A stretch of 64,000 nucleotides of DNA from Candidatus Kapaibacterium sp. Its GTDB lineage: Bacteria; Bacteroidota; Ignavibacteria; Kapaibacteriales; UBA4661. Below are positions 7,671-59,876 of this stretch, in pieces (position 1 is the stretch's first letter; the number at the start of each line of letters is the position of its first letter). The translations under genes were made by a program, and so were the position numbers. Location of the stretch: contig RDXM01000125.1 in NCBI GenBank assembly GCA_004292595.1, positions 1-64,000 of the forward strand. Reading direction: 5' to 3'. Under the pieces are notes generated by a model, which saw only the letters and a list, made by a program, of their open reading frames with translations, was not told the DNA's origin and made no database searches.

Positions 7671-7749
7671 AGTGGCACAGACATTCTTGTCTGTGAATAT
7701 CGCTTGGAAACAGGCACAAAACCTCACAGACAAGAATGTCTGTGCCACT
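7671..7749. repeat. Family-A paired-hairpin repeat, copy 1
   Basis: The 79-bp unit begins AGTGGCACAGACATTCTTGT and ends with its inverted counterpart. Each half is itself a hairpin with stem CACAGACA/TGTCTGTG and loop TTCT or AGAA. Lies between eno and the phosphohexomutase gene. Confidence 0.9.
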
Positions 7750-9296: not shown

Positions 9297-9375
9297 AGTG
9301 GCACAGACATTCTTGTCTGTGTTTTTCACGCAAAACCCTTTACCAACACTCACAGACAGGAATGTCTGTGCCACT
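9297..9375. repeat. Family-A paired-hairpin repeat, copy 2
   Basis: Same two-hairpin layout as copy 1, from AGTGGCACAG to GTGCCACT, located 24 bp after the phosphohexomutase stop. One base differs in the right-hand hairpin (CAGACAGG instead of CAGACAAG). Confidence 0.9.
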
Positions 9376-11308: not shown

Positions 11309-11386
11309 GGTGGCACAGACATTCTTGTCTGTGTTTTTCGCTTGAAACCCGTGCCAATACTCACAGACAAGAATGTCTGTGCCACT
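11309..11386. repeat. Family-A paired-hairpin repeat, copy 3
   Basis: Two hairpins with stems CACAGACA/TGTCTGTG in inverted orientation, bounded by GTGGCACAG and GTGCCACT. It sits between xseA and the kinase-like gene, ending about 40 bp before the latter's ATG. Confidence 0.9.
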
Positions 11387-12510: not shown

Positions 12511-12546
12511 GGAATGATGCCATACTACCATACAAAAAAATTTATT

Positions 12547-12622
12547 AGTGGCACAGACATTCTTGTCTGTGAGTGTTGGTGCAGGTTCCAGCAGAAACAC
12601 AGGCAAGAATGCCTGTGCCACT
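12547..12622. repeat. Family-A paired-hairpin repeat, copy 4 (with paired substitutions)
   Basis: Left half is the standard sequence. The right half reads CAGGCAAGAATGCCTGTG, so both arms of that hairpin changed together (GACA to GGCA, TGTC to TGCC) and base pairing is kept. Confidence 0.9.
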
Positions 12623-12701
12623 AAAGCCTGATTTTATGCACCTTATACGAGTTTTGTATGGTACAAGTAGGAATGATGCTGAATTATTCGTGCTGTCGTG
12701 G

Positions 12702-13963: not shown

Positions 13964-14027
13964 ACGTGGATGTATAGCTCCCAGAGGGGTAAAAACAGGA
14001 AATTTGTACTAAAAAAGCTACGATGCT

Positions 14028-14153
14028 CTTCCCGTCCTACGCTTTCCTAAGCGTAGAACGGCTTTCGCGGTAATGGGTTTCGCGGTAGTGGTTTTCCCAG
14101 AATCATAGTACCGTGAAACCCGTTCTACCGTTCAGAAACGGTAGGACGGGAAG
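14028..14153. repeat. Family-C paired-hairpin repeat, full copy
   Basis: Begins CTTCCCGTCCTACGCTTTCC and ends with the inverted counterpart GTAGGACGGGAAG. Each end forms its own hairpin (CTACGCTT/AAGCGTAG and CTACCGTT/AACGGTAG). The middle contains direct repeats of GGTTTCGCGGTA-type sequence. Confidence 0.8.
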
Positions 14154-15060: not shown

Positions 15061-15160
15061 ATGTCACTGTTTTCGTGGTTTCTTTTTGTGTAGGTTTGCA
15101 GCAAATATTCGCAGAACAGAGCCGTACCCGTGTAGAGCTTCATATCGTGTAGAGAGCTTC

Positions 15161-15193
15161 AGATGTAGTCCACCTCGAAGGTGGACTACATCT
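15161..15193. repeat. Perfect 15-bp-arm palindrome in the NHL gene leader
   Basis: AGATGTAGTCCACCT and AGGTGGACTACATCT separated by CGA. There is no T run, so a REP-like or regulatory hairpin is likelier than a terminator. It ends 75 bp before the start codon. Confidence 0.7.
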
Positions 15194-15268
15194 CACACAC
15201 CACCACTCTTGGTGCATGCAGCTTTGGTCTCTGTCCTTTATTCACTTTTTATGTGTAGGAAGGTTTGT

Positions 15269-18121
15269 ATGAAAATACACCAAATACCCCCCCCCGTAAC
15301 TCTTTGCAAGCAATTACAAAACAATGACTTACACCGCAAGTTGCTAACCGCCCTCGTGGCGTGTGTGCTGCTACTCACGCTGGCACTGCCCCGCACCGCC
15401 CACGCCCAAGTAGTAACGACGCTGGCGGGCGATGGCACTGCTGCTTTTCTTGATGGCACAGGCACTGGTGCGCGGCTTAATGGACCTCTTGGCGTGTGTA
15501 GTGACGGGGCGGGCAATCTTTTTGTGGCAGACCAACTCAATCACCGCATCCGTCGCATTGTCATCGCTACGGGCGTGGTAACGACGCTGGCGGGTGATGG
15601 CACAGCTAACTTTCTTGATGGTACGGGCACCGCAGCGCGGTTTAATAGTCCTTGGGGTATATGCAGCGACGGCGCAGGTAATCTTTTTGTTGCAGAACAA
15701 GCTAATCATCGTATTCGTCGCATTGTCATCGCCACGGGCGTGGTAACGACGCTGGCGGGAAATGGTACTGCTACCTTTCTTGATGGTACGGGCACAGGGG
15801 CGCGGTTTAATGGACCTCTTGGCGTGTGTAGCGACGGGGCGGGCAATCTTTTTGTGGCGGATCATGGTAATAACCGCATCCGTCGCATTGTCATCGCCAC
15901 AGGTGTGGTAACGACGCTGGCGGGAAATGGCACTGCTGGTTTTCTTGATGGTACGGGCACCGCAACGCAGTTTGCTGGACCGCCTGGCATATGCAGCGAC
16001 GGGGCGGGCAATCTTTTTGTGGCGGACTGGACCAATCACCGCATTCGTCAAATAGTCATTGCCACAGGTGTGGTAACGACACTGGCGGGCGATGGCACTA
16101 CTGGTTTTCTTGATGGTACAGGCACTGGTGCGCGATTTAATTCGCCATATGGAGTATGCACTGACGGCGCGGGTAATCTCATTGTGGCAGACTGGGGTAA
16201 TGGCAGCATTCGTCGCATCGCCATCGCTACGGGCGTGGTAACGACGGTAGCTGGCAACGGCACCTCTGCTTTTCTTGATGGTACGGGTAGCGGTGCGCAG
16301 TTTAATCAGCCGACGAGCCTGTGCATTGACGGTACGAACACGTTTGTGGCGGACTATGCCAATAATCGTATCCGCCGCATTAGCCCACTGCCACCGCCAC
16401 CGCCGCCAGTACCACCGCCGCCACCAGCCCCACCAACACTTGCGGGCGGCACATTTTCTGCCTCCATCGGCATTCCCTTTGGCAACACCTTGAGCCTCGG
16501 CGGTAACCCCGCGCCCAGCCTCAGCGTTACCACTGGTGCGCTGCCGCCTGGCATCATCCTTGATGGAAATAGGCTCACGGGCATTCCGACGGTGCTTGGC
16601 ATCTTCACCTTCACCCTTACCGCCACCAACAGCGAAGGCACCGTAACGGCGAATGTGACCATCACCGTTGGGCAGGCAATCCCACAAATAACGGCTGTTT
16701 TGCCGCCAAATGGCTCCTTTGGTTCGACCGTTACCATCACGGGCTTCAATCTTGATGGCGCGACCGCAGTAACGGTGGGCGGCGTTCCCGTGCAGAGTTT
16801 CACCGCCTCTGGTACGACGATTATCGCCGTTTTGGGTGCGCCCGGCAATAGCGGCACACTGTCAGTTTCTACGCCGCTCGGCAATACTGCCATTGGTGGC
16901 TTTAGCTATGAGCCGCCGCCTGTGCCGGTGCTGGGGTTTGTGGGTGCTTCTGGCGGAAGCGGCGGCGGCACTACGCCGTCATCAAGTGGCGCATTCGCAG
17001 GGCTGATTCCGCCTATTCCAACGGGCGACAGCAACGTAACGTTCTTCCTGCCCGGTCAAAATATTCCTTCGTTTGCCAACATTAGCATTACGCCCATTTC
17101 TAGTTCTGGTGCGACTACCAGCTTTTCAACATTTTTACCGATTGTTGCAGTCAGCGCAACAGGCGCGACAGTGCTGATTCCGTCCTACGCGCTTCTGCCC
17201 AGCGCACAACGCCTGAGCGTGCGCGTGGGCGACGTAACGGTTTCGACAACCTTTGCGATTGTCCGCACTTCTGCACTGCCCGCCATTACTGGGCTTTCGG
17301 TCGGTTCGACCACCGCAAGCGGCGCAGGCTTTGCAACGATTGTGAGCGGCACAGGTTTCTTCCGCAATGGCTTGGCAAAGATATTTGTGAATGATGAGGA
17401 AAGTTATTTCAGCCAAGTTCTTTCCTCGACGCAAGCGCAGGTGCATATTCCCGCGCATCTGAACGTGCGGCGTGGCACGGTGCGCTTCCGCATCCAGAAT
17501 CTTGACGGACAAAGCACGAGCGGAACGGTAGAGATTATTGGACGCGCTGCGCCTCTGATTTTGAGCGCAACGCCCAAGCGGACGAGTGCAGGTTTATCGT
17601 TTATTGTGCGTGGTGTGGCGTTCAGCCCGCGTCTGACGGCAATTTTGGGTCGGCGGAGTGTGCAGGTTGTGAACGCGAGCGATATTGAATGCGAAGTGCT
17701 TGTTCCGAGCGATTTCGCGCTGGGTGGCTCGGCAACGGTGCTGCTGACCGTGAGCAATCCCGACGGACAACGCCACGGCTTACTGATTTCTGGCGAAGCG
17801 TTCTCGCAAGGAACAGCAAGCAAGGAACAGGGAACAGAGACCAGCACCGAAGCGGCATTGAAGGAAGAAGGCGCAGAGAGCGCATCATTACTACGTTCCT
17901 ACCCGAACCCAGCAACGGAGACGGTTTCGGTGGAAGTGCCAGCGAGCTTGAAAGCGCGTCGGTACTCGGTTGTGAATGCGTTGGGCGAAGAAGTAGTAAG
18001 CGGCACAGTACAAGGCAATGAAGCATTGGTGCTGGATGTACGGCGTTTGGTAAAGGGGTTGTACACGGTGCGCGTCGTGGGCGCGTCGCGGGTGCGAGCA
18101 GCGCAGGTGATTGTGCGGTAA
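15269..18121 (+). CDS. Secreted NHL-repeat / IPT-TIG protein with T9SS sorting domain
   Basis: ATG 15269 follows a good ribosome site (AGGAAGG). Residues 1-47 are a signal peptide ending TAHAQ. Six units of 55 residues, each with VVTTLAG, FLDGTG, GVCSDGAGNLFVAD and RIRRI, run from about residue 48 to 375 and should fold as a six-bladed NHL beta-propeller. A proline-rich linker follows, then a putative-Ig (He_PIG) domain with LPPGIILDGNRLTGIPT, an IPT/TIG domain (PNGSFGSTVTITG), further beta-rich repeats, and a C-terminal sorting domain beginning LLRSYPNPATETVSVE and ending QVIVR. It is therefore exported by the Sec system and then T9SS to the cell surface. A run of nine C residues lies in codons 7-9, a possible slippage site. 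Confidence 0.88.
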   Translation: MKIHQIPPPVTLCKQLQNNDLHRKLLTALVACVLLLTLALPRTAHAQVVTTLAGDGTAAFLDGTGTGARLNGPLGVCSDGAGNLFVADQLNHRIRRIVIATGVVTTLAGDGTANFLDGTGTAARFNSPWGICSDGAGNLFVAEQANHRIRRIVIATGVVTTLAGNGTATFLDGTGTGARFNGPLGVCSDGAGNLFVADHGNNRIRRIVIATGVVTTLAGNGTAGFLDGTGTATQFAGPPGICSDGAGNLFVADWTNHRIRQIVIATGVVTTLAGDGTTGFLDGTGTGARFNSPYGVCTDGAGNLIVADWGNGSIRRIAIATGVVTTVAGNGTSAFLDGTGSGAQFNQPTSLCIDGTNTFVADYANNRIRRISPLPPPPPPVPPPPPAPPTLAGGTFSASIGIPFGNTLSLGGNPAPSLSVTTGALPPGIILDGNRLTGIPTVLGIFTFTLTATNSEGTVTANVTITVGQAIPQITAVLPPNGSFGSTVTITGFNLDGATAVTVGGVPVQSFTASGTTIIAVLGAPGNSGTLSVSTPLGNTAIGGFSYEPPPVPVLGFVGASGGSGGGTTPSSSGAFAGLIPPIPTGDSNVTFFLPGQNIPSFANISITPISSSGATTSFSTFLPIVAVSATGATVLIPSYALLPSAQRLSVRVGDVTVSTTFAIVRTSALPAITGLSVGSTTASGAGFATIVSGTGFFRNGLAKIFVNDEESYFSQVLSSTQAQVHIPAHLNVRRGTVRFRIQNLDGQSTSGTVEIIGRAAPLILSATPKRTSAGLSFIVRGVAFSPRLTAILGRRSVQVVNASDIECEVLVPSDFALGGSATVLLTVSNPDGQRHGLLISGEAFSQGTASKEQGTETSTEAALKEEGAESASLLRSYPNPATETVSVEVPASLKARRYSVVNALGEEVVSGTVQGNEALVLDVRRLVKGLYTVRVVGASRVRAAQVIVR
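15410..16390 (+). repeat. Six tandem 165-bp repeats encoding NHL blades
   Basis: Unit starts fall at 15410, 15575, 15740, 15905, 16070 and 16235, exactly 165 bp apart, and the copies are close to identical at DNA level apart from the last. Such arrays can change copy number by recombination. Confidence 0.9.
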
Positions 18122-18142
18122 AGTAAACAAGCATCTACCGCT

Positions 18143-18185
18143 CTTCCCGTCCTACGCTTTCGGAAGCGTAGAACGGGTTTCGCGG
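18143..18185. repeat. Family-C repeat, half copy
   Basis: CTTCCCGTCCTACGCTTTCG continuing to AACGGGTTTCGCGG. This is the left half of the 14028-14153 element, with hairpin CTACGCTT/AAGCGTAG, without the inverted partner. Confidence 0.75.
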
Positions 18186-18190
18186 AAAAG

Positions 18191-19609: not shown

Positions 19610-19686
19610 AGTGGCACAGACATTCTTGTCTGTGAGCGTTAGTGCGGGATGTAGGCGAAAGCACAGACAAGAATGTCTGTGCCACT
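19610..19686. repeat. Family-A paired-hairpin repeat, copy 5
   Basis: AGTGGCACAGACATTCTTGT to the inverted GTGCCACT, two perfect CACAGACA/TGTCTGTG hairpins, 35 bp downstream of fabG. Confidence 0.9.
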
Positions 19687-22018: not shown

Positions 22019-22050
22019 CCTCTATTATTGCCGAGACACCTGACTAGTTA

Positions 22051-22145
22051 TACCGTTTTGACTGTATTTTGAATACTTTGATTTGAGCAAGGCAGCATGC
22101 TGCCTTGTTTCGGAGAATTGAAACTATTCATTTTACGAAACGGTA
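22051..22145 (+). mobile_element. Family-B MITE-like element, copy 1
   Basis: 95 bp from TACCGTTTTGACTGTATTTT to CGAAACGGTA, terminal inverted repeats of TACCGTTT. The central 20-bp perfect palindrome is CAAGGCAGCATGCTGCCTTG. TTA occurs on both sides (22048-22050 and 22146-22148), consistent with a 3-bp target duplication. No transposase is encoded. Confidence 0.8.
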
Positions 22146-38648: not shown

Positions 38649-38808
38649 AGTGGCACAGACATTCTTGTCTGTGTTTCCCACTTGAATCCAGCACTAATAC
38701 CGTTTCGATTGTAAAATGAATAGTTTCAATTCTCCGAAACAAGGCAGCATGCTGCCTTGCTCAAATCAAAGTATTCAAAATACAGTCAACAGAAATGTCT
38801 GTGCCACT
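38649..38808. repeat. Family-A repeat copy 6, split by a family-B element
   Basis: The left arm AGTGGCACAGACATTCTTGT is intact. The right arm survives only as CAGAAATGTCTGTGCCACT. Between them lies a family-B element (38698-38789), so the B copy entered an existing A copy. Confidence 0.9.
38698..38789 (-). mobile_element. Family-B MITE-like element, copy 2, right end deleted
   Basis: Starts TACCGTTTCGATTGTAAAAT after TAA and carries the same central palindrome as the other copies in reverse orientation. The other end stops at ACAGTCAA instead of running on to AACGGTA. The deletion also removed part of the surrounding family-A arm. Confidence 0.8.
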
Positions 38809-44841: not shown

Positions 44842-45371
44842 TGTTTGGTAAGGATTCAGATGATGTCTGTTGTTGAAGCTGTGATAAAACCTGTGACTGA
44901 AGTGCCATTTCGTTGGTAGAAGAACTCAACTGTGTAATACCGTTTTGATTGTATTTTGAATACTTTGATTTGAGCAAGGCAGCATGCTGCCTTGTTTCGG
45001 AGAATTGAAACTATTCATTTTACAATCGAAACATTCATTTTACAATCGAAACGGTATAACTCTTCAATTGCCTGTTTACGAGCCACATTATTTGCACTGA
45101 TGATACTCAAACTTACTCCAATAGCTGTACCAACGCCCATGACTGTTAAGATGATAGTCAACCACTTCGTAAAGTCATCAAAACGTTTATCGTAGAGTTT
45201 ATCAATGTACTCAAGTTTTGTGCGGAAATCACGGTTTTCTTGTTCGAGTTTTTGGATGCGTTGGTGCAAGGAATCAACACTCTTCTCACCAAGCGCGTAA
45301 AGACTGGGCGAGTGCGCCAGAAGCGATACAAATGCGGTGAGCAAAACAGTAATAACTTTAACAGAAAGCAT
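44834..45371 (-). pseudogene. Small membrane coiled-coil gene interrupted by a family-B element
   Basis: The intact part encodes a signal or membrane segment (VKVITVLLTAFVSLLAHS), a coiled coil (LHQRIQKLEQENRDFRTKLEY) and a second helix (LTIILTVMGVGTAIGVSLSII), reading up to RKQAIEEL at the element boundary. In the present sequence the frame then runs 13 residues into the element (YRFDCKMNVSIVK) and stops at 45015. On the far side of the element a frame reads TQLSSSTNEMALQSQVLSQL and ends at 44834, overlapping the next start codon, which looks like the lost C-terminus. With a TTA duplication removed the frames are off by one, so an extra indel must be assumed. Broken rather than fully absent. 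Confidence 0.6.
44938..45056 (+). mobile_element. Family-B MITE-like element, copy 3, with internal 20-bp duplication
   Basis: 119 bp from TACCGTTTTGATTGTATTTT to AATCGAAACGGTA with the shared central palindrome. TAA flanks it at 44935-44937 and 45057-45059. The block ATTCATTTTACAATCGAAAC occurs twice in tandem near the right end, which explains most of the extra length over copy 1. Confidence 0.8.
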
Positions 45372-46675: not shown

Positions 46676-46750
46676 AGTGGCACAGACATTCTTGTCTGTG
46701 TTCTTCTTAAACTCGCACCAATACTCACAGACAAGAATGTCTGTGCCACT
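46676..46750. repeat. Family-A paired-hairpin repeat, copy 7
   Basis: AGTGGCACAGACATTCTTGT to the inverted GTGCCACT, between the rhomboid and metG genes, both on the minus strand. Confidence 0.9.
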
Positions 46751-59708: not shown

Positions 59709-59790
59709 TGCCTCTTCCACTCACTTTTAACGTTTGATGCCGTGAAGTACCGTACTCTCTCCTTTGCTCGCCAATGTACCACCCAAGATG

Positions 59791-59860
59791 TAGCGCAGAC
59801 AAGAGTGTCTGCGCTACCAGCAAGAACAGGCTTCGGTAGAACAGACACTCTTGTCTGTTC
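59791..59860. repeat. Diverged paired-hairpin repeat related to family A
   Basis: GTAGCGCAGACA-AGAG-TGTCTGCGCTAC is a perfect hairpin, followed by GAACAGACA-CTCT-TGTCTGTTC. The paired-hairpin design and the CAGACA/TGTCTG core match family A, while outer bases changed in matched pairs. It ends 16 bp before the start codon of the next gene. Confidence 0.75.
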
Positions 59861-59876
59861 CATCCGAAAAGCAGCC

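What the first reader, a model, noticed from the sequence alone, without database searches (positions are those of the whole stretch)
7671..7749. Family A: a recurrent paired-hairpin repeat with compensatory changes
At least seven copies (7671, 9297, 11309, 12547, 19610, 38649, 46676) plus a rewritten one at 59791 lie strictly between genes. Each has two inverted hairpins CACAGACA-nnnn-TGTCTGTG. The copy at 12547 changed both arms together (GGCA/TGCC), and 59791 changed GTGCC to GTAGCG on both sides. That points to selection on structure, the pattern of REP doublets mobilised by RAYT (IS200-like) transposases. No RAYT gene is in this window.
Basis: partly seen in the sequence, partly recalled or inferred. 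Interest (0 to 1): 0.6.

Follow-up and report, generated by a model that had tools for sequence, protein, structure and literature searches.

The report
Hairpin repeats and transposase inside RecG
The hairpin pairs are the core of a short parasitic DNA element moved by an ordinary insertion-sequence enzyme, and the only hairpin-flanked 'REP' transposase found in this genome sits, without its own start or stop codon, as an extra domain inside the DNA-repair protein RecG, an arrangement that recurs in other proteins of other bacteria.

Summary
The hairpin pairs are real: 740 GTGG-hairpins genome-wide, control 0. It is a ~151-nt miniature transposon (MITE) with 17-nt terminal inverted repeats CTYTGTACACGACAAAA (variant CTRAGTACCATACAAAA). 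Thirteen of 16 complete copies have 9-bp target duplications (mispaired control 2/240). The copy at 12547 has a clean empty site in a close relative. An IS4-family insertion sequence with the same ends and a 9-bp duplication lies in that relative, and the start of one with the same ends lies in this genome. So the doublets were most likely spread by an IS4-type transposase, not by RAYT.

The RAYT idea is still partly right. The two hairpins diverge 0.02 per site against 0.17-0.18 for the spacer between them, so the hairpin itself is maintained. The genome holds one RAYT, flanked by the same hairpins: in frame inside recG, with HUH and Tyr residues and no start or stop codon of its own. Two congeners share this. 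In-frame RAYTs also split HsdR, three kinds of DNA methylase and a verrucomicrobial MetH, with dN/dS 0.10-0.20 in HsdR. I found no description of this; one survey discarded such long fusions.

The parts
7672..7748 (.). family A hairpin pair (decayed MITE core, 29-nt spacer, no outer ends left)
9298..9374 (.). family A hairpin pair (decayed MITE core)
11310..11385 (.). family A hairpin pair with partial MITE arms on both sides; absent from the orthologous gap of relative G005
12520..12669 (+). the one near-complete MITE of the window: outer inverted repeat TACCATACAAAA (12526-12537) / TTTTGTATGGTA (12652-12663) around the hairpin pair 12548-12621; second hairpin is the GGCA/TGCC variant
12511..12519 (.). 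left copy of the target duplication GGAATGATG
   Evidence: single copy at the empty site in G005
12670..12678 (.). right copy of the target duplication GGAATGATG
19611..19685 (.). family A hairpin pair with MITE arm TGAAGCCTGATTTT on the right
38650..38673 (+). single family A hairpin; unit broken off in the spacer, followed by another repeat (TAATACCGTTTCGATTG...)
46677..46749 (.). family A hairpin pair with partial MITE arms
59790..59817 (.). double-foot REP GTAGCGCAGACAAGAGTGTCTGCGCTAC (a different REP class, not a family A MITE)
59836..59863 (.). second REP GTAGAACAGACACTCTTGTCTGTTCCAT beside it

Best explanation
Family A is a MITE: a ~151-nt non-autonomous derivative of an IS4-family insertion sequence. 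The IS4 transposase acts in trans on its 17-nt ends (CTYTGTACACGACAAAA, variant CTRAGTACCATACAAAA), cuts and pastes it, and leaves 9-bp target duplications. Inside the ends lie two inverted arms that in most copies have become RAYT-type REP hairpins (GTGG + 8-bp stem + 4-nt loop). The arms seem to have changed stepwise in master copies from GTGGCTTGAGACTTC... to GTGGCACAGACATTC.... After insertion the ends, arms and spacer decay while the hairpins stay almost invariant, so a second force acts on the hairpin alone. The candidate is the genome's only hairpin-flanked Y1 transposase (RAYT), which is encoded as an in-frame internal domain of RecG and is flanked by the same hairpins. Shown: MITE anatomy, target duplications, an empty site, an IS with the same ends, hairpin conservation, and the in-frame RAYT with intact catalytic residues. 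Inferred: that the IS4 enzyme moves the MITE, that RAYT acts on the hairpins, and that the fusion protein is made and active.
For: Ends and duplications: 13/16 TIR-complete copies have >=8/9 matching 9-bp duplications (two more match with a 1-nt shift) against 2/240 mispaired controls. Outer inverted repeat >=10 in 19/78 units against 12/229 mispaired. Complete type-A copies are nearly all 149-150 nt between TIRs. 72/78 doublets share the 28-nt spacer to >=0.6 similarity and 45/78 the right arm. Copy 12548 lies between GGAATGATG repeats with the empty site in G005. Mobiliser: G005:C14:80600-81780 is a 1181-bp IS with CCTATGTACACGACAAAA...TTTTGTCGTGTACAAAGG ends, a 351-aa DDE/IS4 transposase (NF033591, 203 bits, cut-off 152) and duplication GGTACAGAC. 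In this genome a TIR followed by a related transposase C-terminus runs off contig C19 (sequence, read by eye). Hairpin maintenance: 0.016-0.027 per site against 0.17-0.18 spacer and 0.25-0.29 right arm. RAYT: PF01797 hit in a >900-aa recG frame with REPs on both sides; same in G006 and G007.
Against: No complete IS4 copy was found in this assembly itself; only TIR counts and a contig-end fragment. Many doublets no longer show ends or duplications, so their route is inferred from the shared spacer. Spacer divergence includes subfamily differences, so the hairpin/spacer contrast is partly inflated; the hairpin could also be kept by selection as a terminator or mRNA stabiliser, not by RAYT. A second, different TIR type (GGTGCTAAATGATTT, 183-184 nt, two copies in G005) also carries the hairpin pair, which the simple MITE story does not explain. 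RAYT presence does not track hairpin number: G005 (1044 hits) has no close relative of this RAYT.
Confidence: 0.75

Rival explanations
1. Family A is a REPIN population copied by RAYT: the RAYT domain in RecG recognises the GTGG hairpin pair on single-stranded DNA and copies it to new intergenic sites.
For: GTGG/GTAG foot, inverted doublets, hundreds of intergenic copies; RAYT flanked by the same hairpins in three species; hairpins far better kept than the spacer. In PMC8266576 a RAYT from Marinomonas tolerates GTGG with a shifted cleavage dinucleotide.
Against: 9-bp target duplications and terminal inverted repeats outside the hairpins; identical ends on an IS4-family IS; no close relative of this RAYT in hairpin-rich G005.
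Confidence: 0.12
2. The hairpins are kept because they work in RNA or DNA for the host (transcription termination, mRNA 3' protection, gyrase or IHF sites), and mobility is incidental.
For: Intergenic placement, perfect stems, invariant hairpins in decayed copies.
Against: No enrichment between convergent genes relative to all gaps (++ 19, -- 8, -+ 6, +- 2 against 94, 60, 29, 22); the loop and the GTGG foot are conserved too; no Rfam family matches.
Confidence: 0.25
3. The RAYT in recG is a chance or assembly artefact, or dead sequence merely tolerated in an open frame.
For: Assembly in 199 contigs; the G007 copy is split over two contigs that end in the repeat.
Against: Same site in three species, two of them on a single contig; catalytic H, H and Y invariant among six aligned homologues; RAYTs embedded in HsdR have dN/dS 0.10-0.20; independent host genes in other lineages.
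Confidence: 0.05

Closest known systems
REP / REPIN elements with RAYT (TnpA-REP) transposases (PMC3116915, PMC2817692, PMC6006769)
   Same: GTGG/GTAG foot at a hairpin, inverted pairs, hundreds of intergenic copies, a Y1 transposase flanked by the same hairpins; 'double-foot' REPs also occur here.
   Different: The doublets here are inside an IS4-type MITE with TIRs and 9-bp duplications. The RAYT is not a free-standing gene but an internal domain of RecG.
MITEs of IS4-family insertion sequences
   Same: Same 17-nt ends as an IS4 element, 9-bp duplications, ~151 nt, no coding capacity.
   Different: Its inner arms have turned into RAYT-type REP hairpins and are kept longer than the ends.
IS elements that target REPs, e.g. 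IS4-family ISRm22 in Sinorhizobium (PMC1525189)
   Same: The IS4 copy in G005 and 4 of 16 MITEs are inserted inside REP hairpins at a similar point.
   Different: Here the same element family also carries REPs.
Intragenic REPs and Rickettsia palindromic elements (PMC3733652)
   Same: Palindromic repeats read in frame inside housekeeping genes, often DNA-repair genes.
   Different: Here the whole transposase, not only the repeat, is read in frame as part of the host protein.
Long TnpA-REP 'fusions' noted and discarded in PMC6006769
   Same: Unexpectedly long RAYT proteins were noticed there and attributed to gene fusions or annotation errors.
   Different: Here the fusions are shown to be insertions within defined host proteins, conserved across species and under purifying selection in one host gene.

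Membership tests
REP/REPIN mobilised by RAYT | GTAG/GTGG tetranucleotide at the foot of a hairpin | tested here: met
   75/80 GTGG in the sample; genome-wide exact GTGG 502, GTAG 12
REP/REPIN mobilised by RAYT | RAYT gene flanked by the same REPs in the genome | tested here: met
   G000:C139, inside recG
REP/REPIN mobilised by RAYT | element ends at the REPs; no TIR and no target duplication outside them | tested here: not met
   outer TIRs at fixed distance and 9-bp duplications
REP/REPIN mobilised by RAYT | RAYT binds and cleaves this hairpin | not testable with these tools
   needs biochemistry
MITE of an IS4-family element | terminal inverted repeats shared with an autonomous IS | tested here: met
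   17-nt match to the IS at G005:C14:80600-81780
MITE of an IS4-family element | target duplications of the same length as the IS | tested here: met
   9 bp in MITEs; 9 bp GGTACAGAC at the IS
MITE of an IS4-family element | transposase of the IS4 family | tested here: met
   NF033591 203 bits, cut-off 152; PF01609
MITE of an IS4-family element | mobilisation in trans | not testable with these tools
   needs an excision assay
MITE of an IS4-family element | intact autonomous copy in the same genome | tested here: inconclusive
   only a transposase 3' end next to the TIR at the end of contig C19
RAYT (REP-associated tyrosine transposase) | Y1_Tnp fold with HUH and catalytic Tyr | tested here: met
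   PF01797 39 bits, cut-off 23; H, H, Y invariant in the alignment
RAYT (REP-associated tyrosine transposase) | NCBIfam REP_Tyr_transpos NF047646 over its cut-off | tested here: inconclusive
   79.1 bits, cut-off 80; relative L036 scores 86.6
RAYT (REP-associated tyrosine transposase) | free-standing gene with own start and stop | tested here: not met
   nearest in-frame Met 150 aa upstream, 342 aa of RecG downstream

The most novel reading that the evidence does not exclude
RAYTs can persist as start-less and stop-less domains inside host proteins (RecG, HsdR, DNA methylases, MetH), with their REPs read in frame: an intein-like hiding place without splicing. There the transposase is expressed by the host gene, cannot be lost by a simple deletion, and can travel horizontally with restriction-modification genes. 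This would answer how a transposase said not to copy itself (PMC8049555) persists and spreads.
Probability: 0.55. Interest if true: 0.82.

Novelty: new variant of a known kind. Interest (0 to 1): 0.66.

Why it matters
RAYTs are regarded as single-copy, vertically inherited, domesticated transposases (PMC8049555), and how they persist is open. A RAYT built into RecG, the helicase that remodels replication forks where single-stranded DNA is exposed, joins the transposase to a place where its substrate forms. Recurrence in HsdR, DNA methylases and MetH argues that embedding is a strategy rather than an accident. The MITE part shows that doublets that look like REPINs can be spread by a DDE transposase, so target duplications should be checked before doublets are counted as RAYT products.

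Tried and rejected
RAYT as the disperser of the doublets: rejected on the 9-bp duplications and shared IS4 ends. The Y1_Tnp hit on contig C19 as the cognate RAYT: it is a truncated IS200-type TnpA at a contig end. The hairpins as a terminator system between convergent genes: no enrichment in convergent gaps. Covariation as proof of structure: paired changes exist, but subfamily inheritance may explain most. Tight match between REP foot and RAYT-flanking foot across species: suggestive in G000 (502 GTGG: 12 GTAG) but mixed in G007 (132: 93), which has GTAG beside its RAYT, so not claimed. One-step conversion of MITE arms by template switching: the register is off by one base, so left open. Most other empty-site comparisons with G005 were uninformative because whole intergenic stretches differ. 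Rfam: only a tRNA. Structure prediction was not run, because its stated rule limits it to loci from other tools than the one that gave the RecG fusion.

Full report
1. What is in the window. Six units at the stated places (7672, 9298, 11310, 12548, 19611, 46677) each hold two GTGG-CACAGACA-nnnn-TGTCTGTG hairpins facing each other with GTGG outside, a spacer of 25-29 nt between, all between ORFs. The unit at 38649 has only one hairpin. The one at 59791 is another class: a double-foot REP, GTAGCGCAGACAAGAGTGTCTGCGCTAC, beside a second REP. The genome (4.6 Mb, 199 contigs) has 740 such hairpins with up to 3 mismatches; the reversed pattern has none. In a 449-kb sample I counted 80 hairpins, 75 with GTGG, and 29 inverted doublets, 18 with a spacer of exactly 28 nt. 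The sample was drawn mainly from contigs on which hairpins were already listed, so its density should not be extrapolated.

2. The unit is larger than described. Oriented by the spacer, most doublets share arms (TTCTTCAATA on the left, TGAAGCCTGATTTT... on the right), and a subset has an outer inverted repeat 10-13 nt to the left and 29-31 nt to the right. Pairs of CTYTGTACACGACAAAA ends lie almost always 149-150 nt apart between the TIRs used for the search. Of 16 complete copies, 13 have 9-bp target duplications matching at 8 or 9 positions, and two more match with a 1-nt shift; mispaired flanks give 2/240. The window copy at 12548 lies between two GGAATGATG repeats, and the relative G005 has a single copy at the empty site. 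In all, 72/78 doublets share the spacer, so the decayed ones are the same element.

3. Who moves it. In G005, contig 14, a 1181-bp insertion sequence has the same ends, encodes a 351-aa IS4-family transposase (NF033591, 203 bits against a cut-off of 152) and has a 9-bp duplication GGTACAGAC; it sits inside a REP hairpin of a family A unit. Four complete MITEs lie inside double-foot REPs at a similar point (flanks). In the window's own genome the end CTAAGTACACGACAAAA on contig 19 is followed by sequence whose reverse strand reads ...FKILSCT-stop, like the ...FLGLLSCT-stop end of the G005 transposase; this is my reading of the sequence printed, and the contig ends there. REP targeting by IS elements, IS4 family included, is known (PMC1525189).

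4. How the hairpins arose and why they stay. Complete copies come in three main arm states: GTGGCTTGAGACTTCTTGTCTGTG on both sides, the REP hairpin on the left only, and REP on both; the reverse state is rare (2 in G005). That fits stepwise change in master copies. The two hairpins together diverge 0.016 (G000) and 0.027 (G005) per site, while the spacer between them diverges 0.18 and 0.17 and the adjacent right arm 0.25 and 0.29; in copies with at least 5 of 28 spacer changes, 21 of 28 hairpins in G000 are perfect. Subfamily differences inflate the spacer value, but hairpins are unchanged across subfamilies. Something keeps the hairpin itself: RAYT activity or host selection; I cannot separate these here.

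5. The RAYT. The genome has two Y1_Tnp hits. One is a truncated IS200-type gene at a contig end. The other lies in frame inside recG, between the DEQH and SATPIPRT motifs, flanked by two in-frame hairpins on the left (VAQTFLSV), one on the right (SQTRMSVPL) and one more arm of the older type. It is the only RecG found. In the 449-kb sample, the only good hairpins inside a protein gene are these. Two congeners, G006 and G007, have a RAYT at the same RecG site with the same kind of hairpins. Close relatives lack it: G001 (RecG 98% identical to G006) has a short loop, and G005 (95-98% identical to G000) has a different repeat pair there. The three RecG RAYTs are 48-54% identical and group together (98/81), one long-branch row aside, which suggests one ancestral insertion with losses, or exchange at this site.

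6. It is not unique. A profile search of 395 genomes of the phylum, and one named genome, found RAYTs in long open frames whose two flanks belong to one host protein: HsdR (G300, G335, G198; the G300 frame stops soon after the RAYT), DUF1156-type methylase (G012, G389, G288), another DNA methylase (G353), and MetH of a Verrucomicrobia bacterium (QHNH01000010), where the RAYT with 58-nt inverted REP ends lies between the homocysteine and pterin domains. In G001 a RAYT, broken by one stop, splits an Eco57I-type methylase between profile positions 69 and 64. Embedded RAYTs mostly have no Met within 30-150 residues upstream and have hundreds of host residues downstream, whereas the close free-standing relatives start 1-5 residues and stop 0-3 residues away (in the HsdR cases a Met lies nearer). 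In HsdR the RAYT part has dN/dS 0.10-0.20. So the transposase is made, if at all, as part of the host protein, and in HsdR it is under purifying selection there.

7. Known and new. RAYTs are described as single-copy, vertically inherited and not copying themselves (PMC8049555). REPs inside genes, often repair genes, are known (PMC3733652). REPs inserted in frame within RAYT genes are known, and long RAYT fusions were discarded as fusions or annotation errors (PMC6006769). I found no description of RAYTs as in-frame domains of host proteins in the held papers, which do not include most subscription journals. The family A element itself is a new member of a known kind (IS4 MITE) with an unusual feature (RAYT-type hairpins); the embedded RAYT is a new variant.

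8. Limits. The cut-off for the RAYT family model was missed by 0.9 bits, though a relative passes. No activity was tested.

Noticed in passing
L152:10828-11011 and L194:5041-5223 (relative G005): A second, different terminal repeat type (GGTGCTAAATGATTT, 183-184 nt between ends; one copy with an 8-bp direct repeat AAAAATAG) also contains the family A hairpin pair.
   Followed up: partly
L058:7325-7449 (Verrucomicrobia metH): The same metH gene that hosts a RAYT carries a second in-frame REP pair further downstream.
   Followed up: partly
L066 (G005 recG): At the recG loop where G000 has the RAYT, G005 has an in-frame pair of another palindromic repeat (LPEGEGQ...PSPSGRGLGEG): the loop looks like an insertion hot spot.
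   Followed up: partly
15410-16369: Five tandem copies of a 165-nt repeat inside the ORF 15086-18121 (1011 aa).
   Followed up: no
22047-22136 and 44934-45023: A 90-nt repeat (98% identical) with hairpin GCAAGGCAGC-ATGCTGCCTTG; its start resembles the sequence that cuts off the single-hairpin unit at 38695.
   Followed up: no
14025-14073 and 18140-18188: Another hairpin family, TCCCGTCCTACGCTTTCGGAAGCGTAGAACGG; a copy also lies just left of the family A unit at L132:8645.
   Followed up: no
L001:31-315 (own genome, contig C19): Degenerate IS200-type tnpA with two in-frame TAG codons in the matched stretch, at the contig end; the other end of the same contig runs into an IS4-like transposase.
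   Followed up: partly
L084 (relative G001): A RAYT broken by a stop splits an Eco57I-type methylase exactly within its Pfam domain.
   Followed up: partly
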